From the IMG/VR virus record IMGVR_UViG_3300043536_000050, positions 1-20,214 of that record: a DNA stretch of 20,214 nucleotides, one strand, 5' to 3'. Of the stretch, positions 700-8,099 are shown piece after piece; positions within the stretch are counted from its first letter, which is position 1, and each line of letters starts with the position of its first letter. Origin of the DNA: a virus. The position numbers were made by a program, and so were the translations under genes. Under the pieces are notes generated by a model. The model was given only the letters and a program-made list of their open reading frames with translations. It made no database searches and had not been told where the DNA came from.

Positions 700-1160
700 G
701 CACTCGCCAACTAAGCCTGATGATCGCCGGTAGACCGATGCTCGCCAACGATGGCGGCCACTGGGCGGCCAAGGCGTCTGCGGTGGCCGGTGTGCGCCTT
801 CTGGCGTCTCTCGCCGGTCGTGGGCAGCTCAACGACGAGAAGCAGATCACCGCCGAATGGTCAAGTCTCGACTTTGAGGGGATCCGGCACTATTCGTCGA
901 ATCATAGAGCTTTCCACCTCCCCGTCACCGTCCATGCTTACGGCATCCAGCCGACCTCGGCCAAGCGCTGGATCGACGCCGATGCGATCGCCCCGATGGT
1001 GAAGGCGGTGCTCGACGGCCTGGTGGATGCCAAGCTCCTCGAGGACGACGGCCCGAGGTTCGTGCGCAGCTACCACTACGACATCGCACGCCGGGGACCT
1101 GCTTGGGCCACGGTGGTAGAGATCCGAGAGACAGACGGGGAGGAATCGTGTCCGTGGTAG
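696..1160 (+). CDS. rusA: RusA-like Holliday junction endonuclease
   Basis: The protein has 154 residues, close to the usual size of phage RusA-type crossover junction endodeoxyribonucleases (about 120-160). These act as dimers and cut four-way junctions with Mg2+. The family core is visible at residues 93-118: acidic pair D94 and D96, then K103, D107-G108-L109 and D117-D118, matching the pattern DxD...K...DGL...DD. The residue after the second Asp is Ala where many relatives have Asn. The start is GTG in a GTGA overlap with the upstream stop, preceded by a GAGGAG-type site. The 3' end overlaps the start of the DnaA-like gene. In phages this enzyme resolves recombination or replication intermediates before packaging. 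The family call is firm; activity is not shown. Confidence 0.85.
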   Translation: MSTRQLSLMIAGRPMLANDGGHWAAKASAVAGVRLLASLAGRGQLNDEKQITAEWSSLDFEGIRHYSSNHRAFHLPVTVHAYGIQPTSAKRWIDADAIAPMVKAVLDGLVDAKLLEDDGPRFVRSYHYDIARRGPAWATVVEIRETDGEESCPW

Positions 1161-1438
1161 AAGCGCAACCCTGGTTGCGGCCCGAGCAGATCGTGACGGC
1201 GGTATGCGAATGGACGGGGATAGCGAAAAAAGACCTGATCAGCGCCCAGAAGATCAGCGGTCGGACGATGCAGGCCCGTCGGCTGCTGTGGGCGGCCATG
1301 CGAGTCGAAGGCATGAGCTACCCCGAGATCGGGCGATACGTCGGTCGGCACCACACGACGATCATGGCCGCGATGGCATCGTCTCACCCCATAGGCAACG
1401 AGGTGCACGCGCTGCTCAGGAAGGCCCGGGCATCATGA
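1148..1438 (+). CDS. DnaA domain IV-like DNA-binding protein
   Basis: The protein has 96 residues. The segment from about residue 39 to 80 carries the layout of the DnaA C-terminal (domain IV) signature: an Arg-rich helix (R39...A43-R44-R45), then SYPEIGRYVGRHHTTIM at 57-73. In DnaA, the G-R-x-H-[ST]-T loop contacts the DnaA box. There is no AAA+ ATPase domain, so this is a free-standing box-binding module. The GTG at 1148 is preferred over upstream starts because GGGAGGAA lies just before it and it gives a short overlap with the rusA stop. In this setting it could bind a phage origin, or titrate or mimic host DnaA; that is inference. Confidence 0.8.
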   Translation: MSVVEAQPWLRPEQIVTAVCEWTGIAKKDLISAQKISGRTMQARRLLWAAMRVEGMSYPEIGRYVGRHHTTIMAAMASSHPIGNEVHALLRKARAS

Positions 1439-3191: not shown

Positions 3192-3395
3192 TCAGCGTCC
3201 CGAAGGCTTCCCCCACATCTCGTCGGCCTGCTTCGCTGCCTGGCGGGCGGCCCGGCGCTCCGAGGACTTCACCAGAGCGGTTCGCTGCTTGGTACCGAGC
3301 GATCGTTGGCTCGCCTGGGTGCCATCAGCCCGTGTGATGGTGACCGGCCCGGCTCGAGGTGCCAATGCCGGCGGCGTCTTGCGGCGGACTTTCAC
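3192..3395 (-). CDS. small basic hypothetical protein
   Basis: The protein has 67 residues when started at GTG 3395, which makes a GTGA overlap with the upstream membrane-protein gene. A GTG at 3407 would add four residues. The product is rich in Arg, Lys, Ala and Gln: MKVRRKTPPALAPRAG at the N-terminus and a helical SSERRAARQAAKQADEM near the C-terminus. There is no known domain. The charge suggests nucleic acid binding, but this is weak. It is probably cotranscribed with and coupled to the membrane protein upstream. Confidence 0.55.
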   Translation of the reverse strand: MKVRRKTPPALAPRAGPVTITRADGTQASQRSLGTKQRTALVKSSERRAARQAAKQADEMWGKPSGR

Positions 3396-3583
3396 GGGAC
3401 CGGGCACCCCGGTGCGCTGGTGGCCATGCAGTACCGGACGTAGTGCGGCACGGGCGAGGTGATCGTCGGCGCCGAAGGGGCGCTCGAGGTTTGCGGCTGA
3501 GCGATGATCGCTAGTCCTATCACGGCGAGGACCGCGATCACGATGACCCAGAAGTACGGGGTGTGCTGCCGTTCGTCGTCCAT
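3392..3583 (-). CDS. small single-span membrane protein
   Basis: The protein has 63 residues. A polar N-terminus (MDDERQHT) is followed by one strong membrane helix at about residues 10-29 (FWVIVIAVLAVIGLAIIAQ). A Ser/Pro/Thr-rich tail with two Cys residues follows. The start ATG at 3583 has AGAGGA at a good distance, and a TTGACA promoter lies just upstream. The topology would place the tail outside the cytoplasm if the N-terminus stays inside. Function is unknown: a superinfection-exclusion or lysis-accessory protein is possible, but nothing specific supports it. Confidence 0.65.
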   Translation of the reverse strand: MDDERQHTPYFWVIVIAVLAVIGLAIIAQPQTSSAPSAPTITSPVPHYVRYCMATSAPGCPVP

Positions 3584-3619
3584 GGATTGTCCTCTCGTGC
3601 TTCCCCTTACCGCACTCCT

Positions 3620-3648
3620 ATCTTGCGCTTCCGCAACGGATGTGTCAA
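3620..3648 (-). promoter_or_regulatory. sigma-70-type promoter for the 3583-3192 leftward genes
   Basis: On the minus strand TTGACA (3648-3643) is followed after 17 bases by CAAGAT (3625-3620). The -35 is perfect and the -10 matches at three positions including the last two. The predicted start near 3613 leaves a leader of about 30 bases containing the AGAGGA site. It lies in the divergent gap between the leftward block and the rightward structural genes. Confidence 0.5.
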
Positions 3649-3674
3649 GCTGAAGGTGCGGTCCACGCAGCGAG

Positions 3675-3733
3675 TCCCCCGGTACTTCGGTTGTCCTTGG
3701 CTTCCCCGCCGTTCGGTCACAGAGTCCGGGGGA
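3675..3733. repeat. inverted repeat TCCCCCGG/CCGGGGGA in divergent promoter gap
   Basis: Perfect 8-bp arms at 3675-3682 and 3726-3733 are separated by 43 bases. The right arm ends ten bases before the -10 of the rightward promoter. It could hold two half-sites for a looping regulator, or be a chance GC-rich pairing. Confidence 0.35.
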
Positions 3734-3743
3734 TCTTCGCGTC

Positions 3744-3749
3744 TAGGCT
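3744..3749 (+). promoter_or_regulatory. -10 element of a leaderless promoter for gene 3756
   Basis: TAGGCT fits the actinobacterial TANNNT -10. Its last base lies exactly 7 bases before the GTG at 3756, so transcription should begin on the start codon. No Shine-Dalgarno sequence is present upstream of that GTG, which agrees with a leaderless mRNA. No good -35 is visible. Confidence 0.45.
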
Positions 3750-3755
3750 CGGCTC

Positions 3756-4109
3756 GTGAGCTACGGCAGCTTCTACATCAACGGGCTCCAGACCGGGACG
3801 CCCAGCGGCGGCCAGCAGAGCCTCGGACCGTTCGCCATCGCCTTCGGGGACGTGATCGACACCCAGACCTGGACGGTGAACACCAGCTCGACGATCCCGG
3901 TGCCGGCGACCGCCCTCGGGGTGTGGATCGTCCCGCCGACCGGCTCGACCGTGGCGCTCTCCATGAAGACCGTCTCGGGGGACACCGGCATCTACATCGA
4001 CCCGGGCCAGCCCACGTTCATCAACTTCGACGTGACCACCCCGCACCTGCCATCCAACCTCTATCTTGTCAGTGCAAGTAGCGTTGCCGTCGTCGTCCAG
4101 TTCGTGTGA
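3756..4109 (+). CDS. beta-rich small protein, possibly virion-associated
   Basis: The protein has 117 residues. It is rich in Ser, Thr, Val and Gly with alternating hydrophobic patterns (for example TALGVWIVPP at 52-61 and SSVAVVVQFV at the end), suggesting a compact beta-sandwich. No family is recognised. Similar small all-beta proteins occur as phage decoration or tail-tip components, but the gene lies upstream of the terminase rather than next to the coat gene. It starts with GTG, apparently on a leaderless transcript, and opens the rightward structural operon. The next gene follows after 12 bases. Confidence 0.7.
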   Translation: MSYGSFYINGLQTGTPSGGQQSLGPFAIAFGDVIDTQTWTVNTSSTIPVPATALGVWIVPPTGSTVALSMKTVSGDTGIYIDPGQPTFINFDVTTPHLPSNLYLVSASSVAVVVQFV

Positions 4110-4121
4110 CAAGGAGATCCC

Positions 4122-4736
4122 GTGACCGATACCGCATCCCCAGCGCCCGAGGAGCAGACCCCGGTGGACCCTTCGGCGGCGCCCAGTCCGACCCCGGTGG
4201 AGTCTGTCCCGGAGGCTACGACCGAGGCGCCTGCCTCGACCGAGCCTGCTTCGCCTGCGAGTCCGGACGCCACCCCGCCGCCGACCCTGGAGCCGACCGC
4301 TACCGCCGAGCCCGCGCCCGTCTCGCCTCCCGCTGAGGCGCCAAACCCTACGGAAACGGCGGTGCCGGACTCCACGGCTGTCCCGTCGCCAGCTACCGAC
4401 GCTGCAACTGCGCCCCCGGAAGCTGCTGCGCCCTCACCATCGACGACGCCCGAGAGTACGGTGCCCCCGTCTTCCGTCACCACCCCGCAGCCGGCCGAGC
4501 CCACCGCGGCGCCCGTGACTCGACCTGGCCCTAGCCAGGTGATCCCGCAGCCCGGTTCCTTCGGGGACTCTCGAGAGGTGGAGGCGGCCCGCCGGCTCGG
4601 CATCGGCAACCCGCAGGTCACCGGCATCGCCCTCGACGCCATCCGGGCCATCGACCAGGGGATGAACGCCCTGGAGGCGTGGACGGCGCACGTCCGGCGC
4701 TACCTCGAGGTCGTGAAGCGGGAAACCCAGGCTTGA
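4122..4736 (+). CDS. Pro/Ala/Thr/Ser-rich disordered protein with small folded C-terminus
   Basis: The protein has 204 residues. Roughly residues 5-137 are almost entirely Pro, Ala, Thr, Ser and Glu (repeated TPxP, SPAS and EPT-like words) and should be disordered. Residues 145-204 are ordinary and look helical: SREVEAARRLGIGNPQV through to an Arg/Glu-rich end. The start GTG follows AAGGAGA. No signal peptide or membrane span is present. The layout resembles a tethered linker carrying a small binding domain, but no function can be assigned. Its stop codon lies inside the -35 of the next promoter. Confidence 0.75.
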   Translation: MTDTASPAPEEQTPVDPSAAPSPTPVESVPEATTEAPASTEPASPASPDATPPPTLEPTATAEPAPVSPPAEAPNPTETAVPDSTAVPSPATDAATAPPEAAAPSPSTTPESTVPPSSVTTPQPAEPTAAPVTRPGPSQVIPQPGSFGDSREVEAARRLGIGNPQVTGIALDAIRAIDQGMNALEAWTAHVRRYLEVVKRETQA

Positions 4737-4761
4737 CGCAACGGTAGTTCCCTGCAACAAT
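4733..4761 (+). promoter_or_regulatory. leaderless sigma-70-type promoter for gene 4768
   Basis: TTGACG (4733-4738) is followed after 17 bases by AACAAT (4756-4761). The first matches five of six consensus positions and the second four of six. The start point 7 bases beyond the -10 is the A of ATG 4768. There is no ribosome binding site. The -35 overlaps the stop codon of the preceding gene. Confidence 0.55.
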
Positions 4762-4768
4762 AGTTGCA
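4753..4768 (+). promoter_or_regulatory. palindromic operator over the 4768 promoter
   Basis: TGCAACAATAGTTGCA is a perfect inverted repeat with 6-bp arms and a 4-base centre. It covers the -10 element and the predicted start point, the classical position for a repressor. A small HTH protein is encoded at 5102-5308 in the same transcript and could be the ligand; that is inference. Confidence 0.5.
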
Positions 4769-5112
4769 TGGACGATGACGTGAGCGCCGAGGATCTGCCG
4801 ACCGAGGAGAACGAGCTGGCCGACCTCGACAGGTCCAACGGCCAGCGCATCCAGGCCCTCATGGGCGGCAAGTTCGGGGTCCAGATCCAGTTCCCGCCCG
4901 GCATGTGGGAGAACATGCGGCTCGCGGTGTTCTTAGAGCATCTGCTGATGCAGGTCGGCGCACTGGCCGAGGCCAAGCTGGACTTCGCCCACCGGGTTGC
5001 CGAGATCCTGGGCGCCGCCGAGGACAACGCCAAGAAGGCAGCGCTGACCGCCGGGGTGGAGCAGGCCTTGCAGGGCGGCATCGACCTCGGGAAGATGCGC
5101 CGTGGCGCCTGA
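4768..5112 (+). CDS. hypothetical helical protein
   Basis: The protein has 114 residues. An acidic N-terminus (MDDDVSAEDLPTEENELADL) is followed by QIQFPPGMWENMRLAVFLEH and then mostly helical sequence to the end, including an Ala-rich stretch at 66-100. There is no known domain. It has its own leaderless promoter and palindromic operator, so it may be expressed at a different time from the surrounding genes. Its last 11 bases overlap the start of the HTH gene. Confidence 0.72.
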   Translation: MDDDVSAEDLPTEENELADLDRSNGQRIQALMGGKFGVQIQFPPGMWENMRLAVFLEHLLMQVGALAEAKLDFAHRVAEILGAAEDNAKKAALTAGVEQALQGGIDLGKMRRGA

Positions 5113-5308
5113 TTTCCTGGCCGACATCCGGCGCTGCGCCGACGGCCGCAACGACTTCGACGAGCTGCTCGTCGCCGCGATCAAGGGCGCGCGCCGCCAA
5201 GGGATCAGTTGGACGCAGATCGGAGAGGCGGTGGGCATGACCCGGCAGGGCGCCGCCCAACGGTACGCCAAGTTCTGCCCGAAACCCCAGGTCGAAGATG
5301 CCTCGTGA
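5102..5308 (+). CDS. small helix-turn-helix DNA-binding protein
   Basis: The protein has 68 residues. Residues 36-57 (SWTQIGEAVGMTRQGAAQRYAK) form a helix-turn-helix of the sigma-region-4/RHH-free type seen in many small actinobacterial proteins with the pattern SWxxIGxAxGxxRQxAxxR. A helical N-terminus precedes it. The start is GTG inside the previous gene. It ends in a GTGA overlap with the membrane/coiled-coil gene. It probably regulates transcription, possibly its own operon through the palindrome at 4753-4768. A role in packaging initiation is less likely because a better small-terminase candidate lies at 5975. Confidence 0.7.
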   Translation: MAPDFLADIRRCADGRNDFDELLVAAIKGARRQGISWTQIGEAVGMTRQGAAQRYAKFCPKPQVEDAS

Positions 5309-5823
5309 CCACGGCGCTGATCCTGAGTGGGTGGCTCCTGTCCTTGGTCCTGACGGGCGCCTTGTGTTTCCTCCTCCTGCGTCAGAGCCCAACGTCGAGC
5401 CCGACTTCCCCGACTCCGAGTACGCCGCCGACCCCGATTTCGGCGCCTCCCGATTCGACCCCCTTCTCGACGGAGATGTGGACCTCGATGATGGAGCTGA
5501 TGAGGAGTTCACTGGCCGAGGATCGGGCATTGGTGGAGCGGCTGGTCCTGGGTCGGGAATCACCGCCGACGATCTACTCGTCGCCGCCGCAGCAGAGCTG
5601 GAACGAGAAGCCGATCGGGTTCGACTACGACTCCACTCCGCTGGCGCCGGGGATCGAGGCGGTCCTGGCCCGGGAGACGATCGAGAACGAGCAGTCTCGT
5701 TTGCTGAAGGAGCGCGCCGACTTGCAGGCGAAGCTAAGGGAGATGGCGACGGAGGCGGACCGTCTCGGCTTGGAGGACTTCTTGCCGGGGCCGTGGCAGG
5801 GGAGCGACGACCAGCCGACATAA
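5305..5823 (+). CDS. N-terminal membrane anchor plus coiled-coil protein
   Basis: The protein has 172 residues. Residues 3-25 form a membrane span (TALILSGWLLSLVLTGALCF). A Pro/Ser/Thr linker follows at 27-54, then two helical charged segments at about 57-85 and 116-156, the second with heptad-like Leu/Ala spacing. The GTG start overlaps the previous stop as GTGA, and the third codon positions are strongly G/C, which fixes the frame. The topology resembles type II inner-membrane proteins such as Rz-like spanin subunits, but no lysis genes are adjacent and a spanin would be odd in an actinobacterial phage. Function remains open. Confidence 0.7.
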   Translation: MTTALILSGWLLSLVLTGALCFLLLRQSPTSSPTSPTPSTPPTPISAPPDSTPFSTEMWTSMMELMRSSLAEDRALVERLVLGRESPPTIYSSPPQQSWNEKPIGFDYDSTPLAPGIEAVLARETIENEQSRLLKERADLQAKLREMATEADRLGLEDFLPGPWQGSDDQPT

Positions 5824-5978
5824 TGCTCGAGGTGATCGTGGCCGGCGTCTCGTCCATCCGCGGCGGCCAGCTCTCCATCACCTTCCACGTCCCGTTCGAG
5901 CAGATCGACGAGGGATCGCGCCTGCATCGGTTGCACGGAGAGCAGGTCCGGCTCGAGATAACCCCGTACCAGGCATGA
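5823..5978 (+). CDS. short conserved-looking phage protein
   Basis: The protein has 51 residues. The ATG shares one base with the upstream TAA (TAATG). The product MLEVIVAGVSSIRGGQLSIT, followed by FHVPFEQIDEGSRLHRLHGE, has the look of a small beta-alpha fold. Comparable short proteins with an FxVPxE segment occur in actinobacteriophages, but I cannot name the family. It is coupled on both sides and ends in ATGA with the terminase small subunit candidate. A longer frame beginning at 5298 also ends here but is judged spurious upstream of 5823. Confidence 0.6.
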   Translation: MLEVIVAGVSSIRGGQLSITFHVPFEQIDEGSRLHRLHGEQVRLEITPYQA

Positions 5979-6415
5979 GCCTCTCGGCCAAGGAACTCGA
6001 GCTCATCACCGAGCGCCTATTGGAAGAAGGCGTCCCGCCCGGCGTCGTCGCGCGGGTGTTCGACCTGGATGTCGACCTCGTGCGCGAGGCCCAGAAGGCG
6101 GTCCGGGTGCGGCGTTATGGCACCGATGACCTGGAGGAATACACCGAGCAGACCCGATGGGACGCCATGGAGCACGCGCGTCGGACCATCGCCACCGGCT
6201 CGGAGGCCGACAAGACCCGGTTCAGCGCGGCCATGCTGGGCAAGACCATGGCGGCATCGGCCCGGCGGACCCCGGCGGGGGTGATCCAGAACCAGGAGAC
6301 CATTCTTGAGATGATGGAGAAGATGCGAACGGGCGAACCGGCCGAGCCGAGGGAGCAATCGAGGTTCGTGGCCCGTCTCTCCAACCGCCCCGAGGATGAC
6401 GATGCCGAATCTTGA
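5975..6415 (+). CDS. putative terminase small subunit
   Basis: The protein has 146 residues and lies immediately upstream of the large terminase, with an overlap. The N-terminal part (about 5-45) has a helix-turn-helix-like arrangement: ELELITERLLEEGVPPGVVA, then RVFDLDVDLVREAQKAV. This fits recognition of the packaging site. The middle is helical and likely oligomerises; the C-terminus is acidic and disordered (PEDDDAES), as is usual where small subunits contact the ATPase. The sequence itself is not a clear match to a named family, so the call rests on position, size and domain layout. The start ATG overlaps the previous stop as ATGA. Confidence 0.65.
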   Translation: MSLSAKELELITERLLEEGVPPGVVARVFDLDVDLVREAQKAVRVRRYGTDDLEEYTEQTRWDAMEHARRTIATGSEADKTRFSAAMLGKTMAASARRTPAGVIQNQETILEMMEKMRTGEPAEPREQSRFVARLSNRPEDDDAES

Positions 6416-8099
6416 CCTCTGGCCGATGCTCGAGACCCTCACGATCAAGACCAAGGGGGCCAAGCTCAAGAAGCTGAACCGCAACGATGCCTTCGCCTGG
6501 GCGCAGCGCGAGGTGGTCTCCGAGATCGAGCGGCAGTACAACGCGGGCGAGCCAGTGCGGATCATCGTCCTGAAGGGCCGGCAGTTGGGACTCTCGACTC
6601 TGACCGAGGCGGTCCTGTTCCTCTGGTGCTTCCTGCACCCGGGGACCAACGCCCTGGTGCTCTCGAAGGAGAAGCCCGACTCCGAGTACCTGTTCTCCAT
6701 GACCAAGCGGTACTGGGAGATGGGACCGTTCCAGACCGCCTTCTCCACCAAGTACAACCGGCAGGGCTACATCGAGTGGATGACGGGATCGTCGATCCTG
6801 GTCGACACGGCCAAGAAGGAGGACGTGGGCCGTGGTCGTACCTTGCAAGCGGTCCACGGCTCCGAGGTGGCGATCTGGCCCGAGGCCGACGCCATCGTGG
6901 GAGCGCTGAACGAGGCCATCCCCTACGAGCACGGGACCATCGTGATCTACGAGTCGACGGCCCGGGGCGTGGGCGGCTTCTTCTACGAGGAGTGGATGAA
7001 GGCCATCGACCCCGCCGGGGGCAAATCCGACTTCACCCCGATGTTCTTCCCCTGGTGGGAGCACGACGAGTACGAGGTCAAGAACCACCACCTCCACATG
7101 GCCGAGCTGGACGATGACGAGCGCGAGATGCTGGTCGCGATCCCGAAGATGACCTTCGCCAAGCTGGCCTGGCGCCGTCGCAAGCTCCAGAGCTACTCCA
7201 ACCCCGAGACTTTCAAGGAGGAGTACCCGAACACCCAGGAGGAGGCGTTCCTATCCAGCGGCTCCAACGTCTTCCCCTTGGTCAAGCTGTCCCAGTGCTA
7301 CTTCCCCGACGTGGAGATGGAACAGGGCTTCTTGTACAACGACGGCGGGAAGGTGGCCTTCAAAGAGGACGACGAGGGGCACTTCTTCGTCTACGAGCGC
7401 CCCGACCCCCGGGGCAAGCGCCGCTACGTGGTGGCCGTCGATCCGACCTGGACCATCGAGGGTGATCCCTGCTGCATCCAGGTCATCGACCGCGCCTCGA
7501 TGGAGCAGGTGGCCGTCTGGCACGGGTCGGCCGACGCCCAGAGCATCGGGGACATCGCGCTGGCCATCGCCTACTGGTACGGACCCGAGACCATCTTGAA
7601 CACCGAGATCCAAGGCGGCGGCAAGACGGTGCTCGCCTGGTGGCGCGAGGCCAACTACCAGCACATATGGATGGACCGCCGGGCGGACCGCCCGAAGCTG
7701 ATGATGCAGGCGTACGGGTGGAACACCACCTACGAGACCAAGAACAACATGCTGACCACCATGCAGTCGATCATCCACCGCAAGCACCTGATCATCCACC
7801 ACCCGGCCACCTACTACGAGATGACCCGGTACATCGCCAACCCCGACGGCACCTACGGGCCGTCCCGGCGCAGCGGCCACGACGACTGTGTGACCAGCCT
7901 CGGCATCGGGATCATGACCGTGATCTGGGAGCAGGGCACCCTCGACTACTCGGCGGCCGCGCCCGCGCCCGGCCACCTGCCCGGAGAGCGCAACCCGCAA
8001 CTGGCCGGCAGCTACGGTCGCACGTATACACCTCCGGGCATGGCAACCTTGGGACCCATGGACGACGACGCGATGATCGGGATCGAGGTCACATATTGA
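6402..8099 (+). CDS. terL: terminase large subunit (packaging ATPase/nuclease)
   Basis: This is the motor that pumps phage DNA into the procapsid and cuts concatemers. The frame from ATG 6396 has 567 codons; ATG 6402 is preferred because GAGG lies at 6392-6395. Using the 6396 numbering, residues 57-68 (IVLKGRQLGLST) are the Walker A-type loop, and VHGSEVAIWPE at 153-163 holds the Walker B/catalytic Glu region. GRGRT at 145-149 precedes it. The nuclease domain starts at about 340, with D349 in VAVDPTW, E404 in TEIQGGG and the GHDD pair at 494-497 as the expected metal ligands. All key acidic residues are present and the length is normal. It overlaps the small subunit upstream and shares one base with the next gene. 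Confidence 0.95.
   Translation: MPNLDLWPMLETLTIKTKGAKLKKLNRNDAFAWAQREVVSEIERQYNAGEPVRIIVLKGRQLGLSTLTEAVLFLWCFLHPGTNALVLSKEKPDSEYLFSMTKRYWEMGPFQTAFSTKYNRQGYIEWMTGSSILVDTAKKEDVGRGRTLQAVHGSEVAIWPEADAIVGALNEAIPYEHGTIVIYESTARGVGGFFYEEWMKAIDPAGGKSDFTPMFFPWWEHDEYEVKNHHLHMAELDDDEREMLVAIPKMTFAKLAWRRRKLQSYSNPETFKEEYPNTQEEAFLSSGSNVFPLVKLSQCYFPDVEMEQGFLYNDGGKVAFKEDDEGHFFVYERPDPRGKRRYVVAVDPTWTIEGDPCCIQVIDRASMEQVAVWHGSADAQSIGDIALAIAYWYGPETILNTEIQGGGKTVLAWWREANYQHIWMDRRADRPKLMMQAYGWNTTYETKNNMLTTMQSIIHRKHLIIHHPATYYEMTRYIANPDGTYGPSRRSGHDDCVTSLGIGIMTVIWEQGTLDYSAAAPAPGHLPGERNPQLAGSYGRTYTPPGMATLGPMDDDAMIGIEVTY

What the first reader, a model, noticed from the sequence alone, without database searches (positions are those of the whole stretch)
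4753..5308. Perfect 16-bp palindrome on a promoter with a small HTH gene nearby: possible autoregulatory switch
TGCAACAATAGTTGCA covers the -10 and start point of an otherwise good promoter (TTGACG-17-AACAAT) inside the structural operon. The second gene of the unit encodes a 68-residue HTH protein. A self-repressed internal unit would be an uncommon arrangement just upstream of the terminase genes.
Basis: partly seen in the sequence, partly recalled or inferred. Interest (0 to 1): 0.6.

Follow-up and report, generated by a model that had tools for sequence, protein, structure and literature searches.

The report
Leaderless promoter with self-repressor operator
An uncultured phage, probably of Actinobacteria, carries a small DNA-binding protein gene whose likely landing site lies on the promoter at the head of its own operon, just before the DNA-packaging genes, so the protein probably turns down its own production, much as the mycobacterial protein ClpC2 does.

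Summary
The site is real, but the palindrome is 14/16, not perfect: two 6-bp arms, TGCAAC/GTTGCA, around AATA. It spans an extended -10 and ends on the A of the ATG of a 114-aa gene, 35 nt after TTGACG: a leaderless promoter. A 68-aa HTH gene follows, overlapping. In eleven relatives the same promoter heads the operon that carries the HTH homologue. Nine lineages, the window included, keep the inverted repeat; its innermost pair changes on both sides (C·G to G·C). A blind scan of 2.9 million viral contigs for palindrome+ATG patterns finds an HTH of this family downstream at 15 of 135 sites and upstream at none. The HTH is homologous to those of mycobacterial ClpC2, a proven autorepressor with operator CGTCAAC-n5-GTTGACG abutting a leaderless ORF, and of RelI. 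Best reading: a ClpC2-type autorepressor, stripped to its HTH, with altered half-site and spacer, at the head of a phage packaging operon, repressing itself and probably the genes behind it. No binding or transcription data exist. In some relatives unrelated small genes sit between operator and HTH, as in acr-aca cassettes; their function is unknown. New variant of a known kind.

The parts
4733..4738 (+). -35 hexamer TTGACG, overlapping the TGA stop of the upstream 204-aa ORF
   Evidence: TTGAC or a near match 34-37 nt before the start in most relatives
4737..4752 (+). possible second, degenerate operator CGCAACGGTAGTTCCC (9 of 12 half-site bases)
   Evidence: shuffle p about 0.04; weak here, clearer in L138 and L144; L145 has a perfect GTCAAGGGGTCTTGAC on its -35
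4753..4768 (+). operator O1 TGCAAC-AATA-GTTGCA over the extended -10 and +1
   Evidence: conserved and compensated in relatives
4756..4761 (+). -10 hexamer AACAAT with TG extension at 4753-4754
4768..5112 (+). 114-aa gene of unknown function, start codon at the predicted +1; homologues in L007, L140, L138, L141, absent elsewhere
   Evidence: no Pfam, PHROGs, NCBIfam or PADLOC match; three helices predicted, pLDDT 69
5102..5308 (+). 68-aa HTH protein, proposed autorepressor (recognition helix TRQGAAQRY)
   Evidence: phrog_686 E 7.5e-9; RelI E 5e-11 and ClpC2/Rv2667 E 3e-6 by profile; three-helix model pLDDT 84
5298..5978 (+). next gene of the operon, overlapping the HTH gene (226-aa ORF; a second conserved ORF at 5305-5823 lies in another frame)
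5975..6415 (+). 146-aa gene, small-terminase-like by position
   Evidence: homologues before terL in all relatives
6396..8099 (+). terminase large subunit
   Evidence: phrog_2 E 2e-26, PF17289 above cut-off

Best explanation
4733-4768 is a sigma-70-type leaderless promoter: transcription starts at the A of the 114-aa gene's ATG. The 68-aa HTH protein encoded by the second gene binds as a dimer to TGCAAC-N4-GTTGCA, which covers the extended -10 and +1, and blocks RNA polymerase. This gives negative feedback on the 114-aa gene, on itself and, as the following genes overlap and no other promoter was seen up to 6500, probably on the packaging operon. Shown by sequence: site, promoter spacing, gene order, conservation, paired changes in the arms, homology to ClpC2 and RelI. 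Inferred: dimer binding, repression, transcription start, extent of the operon.
For: (1) Same promoter at the head of the HTH operon in the relatives: start codon 34-37 nt after TTGAC or similar, inverted repeat over the -10: TGCAACAATCGTTGCATG (L007), TGCAAGGATTCTTGCATG (L140), TGCAAGGATCCTTGCATG (L138, L145), TGCAAGGATACTTGCATG (L141), GGCAAGATTCCTTGCGTG (L142), one-mismatch forms in L136, L143, L144. (2) The innermost arm pair is C-G in five lineages and G-C in five, one break. (3) HTH is the first gene in L136, L137, L143-L146; in the rest the operator stays at the operon head. (4) Blind pattern scans: HTH family within 1 kb downstream at 15/135 sites, upstream 0/135. (5) Homology to ClpC2 and RelI; ClpC2 autorepression, operator, tandem sites and leaderless start are published (PMC10030653); the Gordonia amarae ClpC2 locus shows two such sites. 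(6) L144 has the identical operator at a second leaderless promoter.
Against: No experiment on this protein or DNA. The half-site is TGCAAC with N4, not GTCAAC with N5. Two relatives (L137, L146) have only weak or different repeats at the position. The -10 AACAAT is a 4/6 match. The operon boundary is not proven; read-through from upstream genes is possible.
Confidence: 0.75

Rival explanations
1. The repeat is an RNA hairpin that hides the start codon in transcripts reading through from upstream (translational control), not a protein operator.
For: The arms can pair in RNA around the ATG (window MFE -23.8 kcal/mol, z -1.6; L140 z -2.4, L141 z -2.2), and C-G to G-C changes also keep a hairpin.
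Against: A leaderless transcript does not contain the repeat. Second sites lie on the -35 or in the spacer (L145, L144, L138), outside such an RNA. In L145 z is only -0.7 and in L138 the predicted fold uses other pairings. Distantly related loci with the same HTH family carry the same kind of palindrome with other half-sites.
Confidence: 0.08
2. The palindrome is bound by another regulator (host or phage), and the HTH protein acts elsewhere.
For: No binding data; other HTH genes exist in the phage (1103-1438, 1588-1848).
Against: In unrelated phages and bacteria the palindrome goes with this HTH family, and the half-site correlates with a residue of its recognition helix.
Confidence: 0.12
3. 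The pair 4768-5308 is a toxin-antitoxin module of the RelS-RelI/BrnT kind, the HTH protein being antitoxin and co-repressor.
For: RelI is the closest solved relative; phages BoyNamedSue and prophi104-2 carry a BrnT-like gene followed by this HTH.
Against: The 114-aa protein has no match to any toxin family, is predicted all-helical with low confidence, and is missing in about half of the relatives while the HTH stays.
Confidence: 0.08

Closest known systems
ClpC2 (Rv2667 and mycobacterial/actinobacterial orthologues) autorepressor, PMC10030653
   Same: Homologous HTH; pseudopalindrome directly before the ORF, over the promoter; leaderless; tandem sites in some relatives; regulator inside its own transcription unit.
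   Different: Phage protein is the HTH alone, without the Clp-like cyclomarin-binding domain; half-site TGCAAC with N4 instead of GTCAAC with N5; heads a packaging operon.
RelI antitoxin of RelS-RelI (M. tuberculosis), PMC13284704
   Same: Small HTH protein encoded second in its operon; closest sequence relative with a solved structure.
   Different: No RelS/BrnT-like partner here; the authors found no inverted repeat upstream of relSI and doubt that the complex binds DNA.
Aca repressors of acr-aca operons, PMC9410906
   Same: Small HTH gene behind variable small genes; inverted repeat in the core promoter; sits in phage genomes.
   Different: No known acr gene here; not shown to be homologous; leaderless promoter.
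Mycobacteriophage cluster A immunity repressor (7r6r)
   Same: HTH similarity (Foldseek's top match, probability 0.77, E 0.56; profile E 0.025).
   Different: Larger protein and a lysogeny repressor (from my own knowledge, binding asymmetric sites); here a palindrome at one promoter, and no Phage_integrase match in 12 relatives' contigs.

Membership tests
ClpC2-type autorepressor | homologous N-terminal HTH | tested here: met
   profile E 3e-6 to Rv2667; 41% identity over 54 aa to Gordonia amarae ClpC2
ClpC2-type autorepressor | palindrome within 1-2 nt of the ORF, overlapping -10, leaderless spacing | tested here: met
   start site itself not mapped
ClpC2-type autorepressor | operator sequence CGTCAAC-n5-GTTGACG | tested here: not met
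   TGCAAC-n4-GTTGCA
ClpC2-type autorepressor | second upstream operator | tested here: inconclusive
   9/12 match, p about 0.04 in the window; better in L138 and L144
ClpC2-type autorepressor | ligand-binding Clp-like domain | tested here: not met
   68-aa protein, HTH only
ClpC2-type autorepressor | protein binds and represses its promoter | not testable with these tools
   needs gel shift and reporter
RelS-RelI toxin-antitoxin | RelE/BrnT-like toxin gene directly upstream | tested here: not met
   114-aa gene without family match; helical model
acr-aca cassette | inverted repeat in the core promoter of an operon ending in a small HTH gene | tested here: met
acr-aca cassette | associated anti-CRISPR activity | not testable with these tools
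   114-aa protein and the L142 genes are uncharacterised
acr-aca cassette | HTH belongs to a known Aca family | not tested
   Aca profiles not available here

The most novel reading that the evidence does not exclude
An acr-aca-like cassette of actinophages: a ClpC2-type HTH repressor at the head of the packaging operon, with interchangeable small genes between operator and repressor (the 114-aa gene here, three unrelated small genes in L142) acting as counter-defence cargo. The wider HTH family would have an evolvable half-site read partly by the residue after TRQ (Ser with GTCAG, Ala/Gly with CAA).
Probability: 0.2. Interest if true: 0.7.

Novelty: new variant of a known kind. Interest (0 to 1): 0.5.

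Why it matters
It suggests that ClpC2's autorepression is one case of a large actinobacterial and phage family of HTH proteins that sit behind palindromic, often leaderless promoters, and gives a set of natural operator variants paired with their repressors. It also bears on ClpC2 itself: the published model puts DNA binding in its C-terminal domain, whereas the part shared with phage proteins that have the same kind of operator is the N-terminal HTH. For the phages it predicts a feedback loop on packaging genes, and points to small genes of unknown function worth testing.

Tried and rejected
Perfect palindrome: rejected (2 mismatches). Further copies of the site in the window: none convincing. 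A strict one-residue recognition code: only partial, 63 of 66 pairs fit but few independent changes (5 half-site, 6 residue, 7 joint; exceptions L230, L283, L289). Lysogeny switch: no Phage_integrase domain in 12 relatives' contigs, though the contigs may be fragments. Identity of the 114-aa protein: no family or fold match (model only pLDDT 69). Fold search with the HTH model gave only general HTH folds, best Z 5.0; ClpC2 and RelI were not among the rows shown. No similar DNA in isolated phages; terminase only under 30% identical among the best hits. One PHROGs search failed on a wrong coordinate, one genome scan on too diverse an alignment. Terminator-like hairpins before the promoter: strong in L141, L144 and L145 only, not evident in the window.

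Full report
The observation. TGCAACAATAGTTGCA lies at 4753-4768. Its reverse complement differs at two of 16 positions, so it is two perfect 6-bp arms around AATA, not a perfect palindrome. TTGACG (4733-4738), 17 nt and AACAAT (4756-4761) form the only sigma-70-like promoter found in 3300-6500 (0.1 expected in shuffles), with a TG extension. Six bases after the -10 comes the A of the ATG of a 114-aa ORF (4768-5112), so the natural reading is a leaderless transcript; the -35 overlaps the stop codon of the previous ORF. The HTH gene (5102-5308) overlaps the end of the 114-aa gene and is itself overlapped by the next ORFs at 5298 and 5305. The window is a 20,214-base virus record. Its terminase and portal have only distant relatives among isolated phages.

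Relatives. Searches with the terminase and the HTH protein gave four near-identical contigs and about eleven further lineages. In eleven of them (L007, L136-L138, L140-L146) an HTH homologue was found, and the promoter at the head of its operon has the same build, with the start codon about 35 nt after TTGAC or a near match; L007 is cut off before the -35, and L136 has no clear -35. The repeat at the -10 reads TGCAAC..GTTGCA in the window and L007, TGCAAG..CTTGCA in L140, L138, L141 and L145, GCAAG..CTTGC before a GTG start in L142, and one-mismatch forms in L136, L143 and L144. L137 (GCAAC..GGTGC) and L146 (GGTTACCGTAACC) are weak or different. The innermost pair is C-G in window, L007, L143, L144, L137 and G-C in L140, L138, L141, L145, L142, broken in L136: a compensated change. 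Exact 6-bp arms are found at 6 of 12 such starts against 1.25% of other start codons in the same contigs (Fisher 5e-9); lineages are related, so this p-value overstates independence.

Gene order. In L136, L137 and L143-L146 the HTH gene itself is first behind the promoter. In the window, L007, L140, L138 and L141 the 114-aa gene comes first; in L142 three small unrelated genes lie between operator and HTH. The operator thus stays at the operon head whatever is inserted. L144 carries the identical operator (TTCAACTAAGGTTGCA) at a second leaderless promoter, before a 74-aa gene resembling a ribbon-helix-helix protein, and the L013 contig has a second near-copy upstream of the preceding gene cluster. 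Strong hairpins end just before the promoter in L141, L144 and L145, which fits a unit boundary there; the window has no such terminator.

Blind test. Exact patterns for the palindrome plus ATG were scanned through 2.9 million viral contigs. Of 135 sites, 15 have an ORF of this HTH family within 1 kb downstream and none upstream. The patterns came from family members, so some hits are expected by construction (the window's copies, L007, L140, L138, L141, L145), but for TGTCAAC-N5-GTTGACA-NN-ATG four of six sites start exactly at an HTH ORF, at least three of them in contigs not seen before.

Wider family. In isolated phages the same layout occurs in Arthrobacter phages Elkhorn, Corgi and Noely (TGTCAAC-N5-GTTGACA two nt before the ATG; in Corgi and Noely between terminase and portal) and twice in PeggyLeg03; other palindromes precede the HTH in BlueFeather and PensacolaC28. 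In 80 bacterial loci HTH genes, many fused to a ClpX-type zinc finger, are preceded by GTCAGG-N5-CCTGAC. Ser after TRQ goes with GTCAG, Ala or Gly with CAA, in 63 of 66 pairs, but with few independent changes: a lead, not a code.

What it is. Profile search of the PDB finds RelI (E 5e-11) and ClpC2/Rv2667 (E 3e-6). ClpC2 represses itself by binding CGTCAAC-n5-GTTGACG one to two nt before its ORF, often with a second site, at a promoter judged leaderless; gel shifts and reporters are published (PMC10030653). The window has the same anatomy with a changed half-site and spacer and without ClpC2's ligand domain. I therefore read it as a stand-alone ClpC2-type autorepressor. The step from anatomy to function (dimer binding, repression, extent of the operon) is inference.

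Rivals. An RNA hairpin at the start codon is possible in read-through transcripts but would be absent from a leaderless one, and does not explain sites on the -35. A different binding protein is possible but unparsimonious. A toxin-antitoxin pair is unlikely, as the 114-aa protein matches no toxin and is often absent. The acr-aca resemblance (PMC9410906) is one of layout only; homology to Aca proteins was not tested.

Verdict. Interest is moderate: a known mechanism in a new place, with a natural series of operator variants.

Noticed in passing
window 5298-5978 and 5305-5823: Two long ORFs overlap in different frames over about 500 bases, and both have homologues in the same relatives (about 30-44% identity each): apparent dual coding. 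The second begins with a predicted membrane-like segment (by eye).
   Followed up: partly
L140:5296-5370 (also L139:3493-3567): A tRNA-Met (CAT) gene lies directly before the leaderless promoter of this relative.
   Followed up: no
L190 (Gordonia phage BoyNamedSue) 385-406: A BrnT-like gene followed by this HTH (a RelS-RelI-like pair) has a perfect 20-bp palindrome CTGTAAAGGTACCTTTACAG one base before its GTG start, although no inverted repeat was reported upstream of relSI in M. tuberculosis (PMC13284704).
   Followed up: partly
L218-L297, 80 bacterial loci: HTH proteins with TRQS, many fused to a ClpX-type zinc finger, are regularly preceded by GTCAGG-N4/5-CCTGAC; half-site and recognition-helix residue correlate, with exceptions L230, L283 and L289.
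   Followed up: partly
L142:2653-3464: Operator and leaderless GTG promoter head an operon of three small genes (64-76, about 58 and 71 aa) before the HTH gene; functions unknown.
   Followed up: partly
window 1103-1438 and 1588-1848: A DnaA C-terminal-like HTH protein and, on the other strand, a MerR/excisionase-like protein.
   Followed up: no
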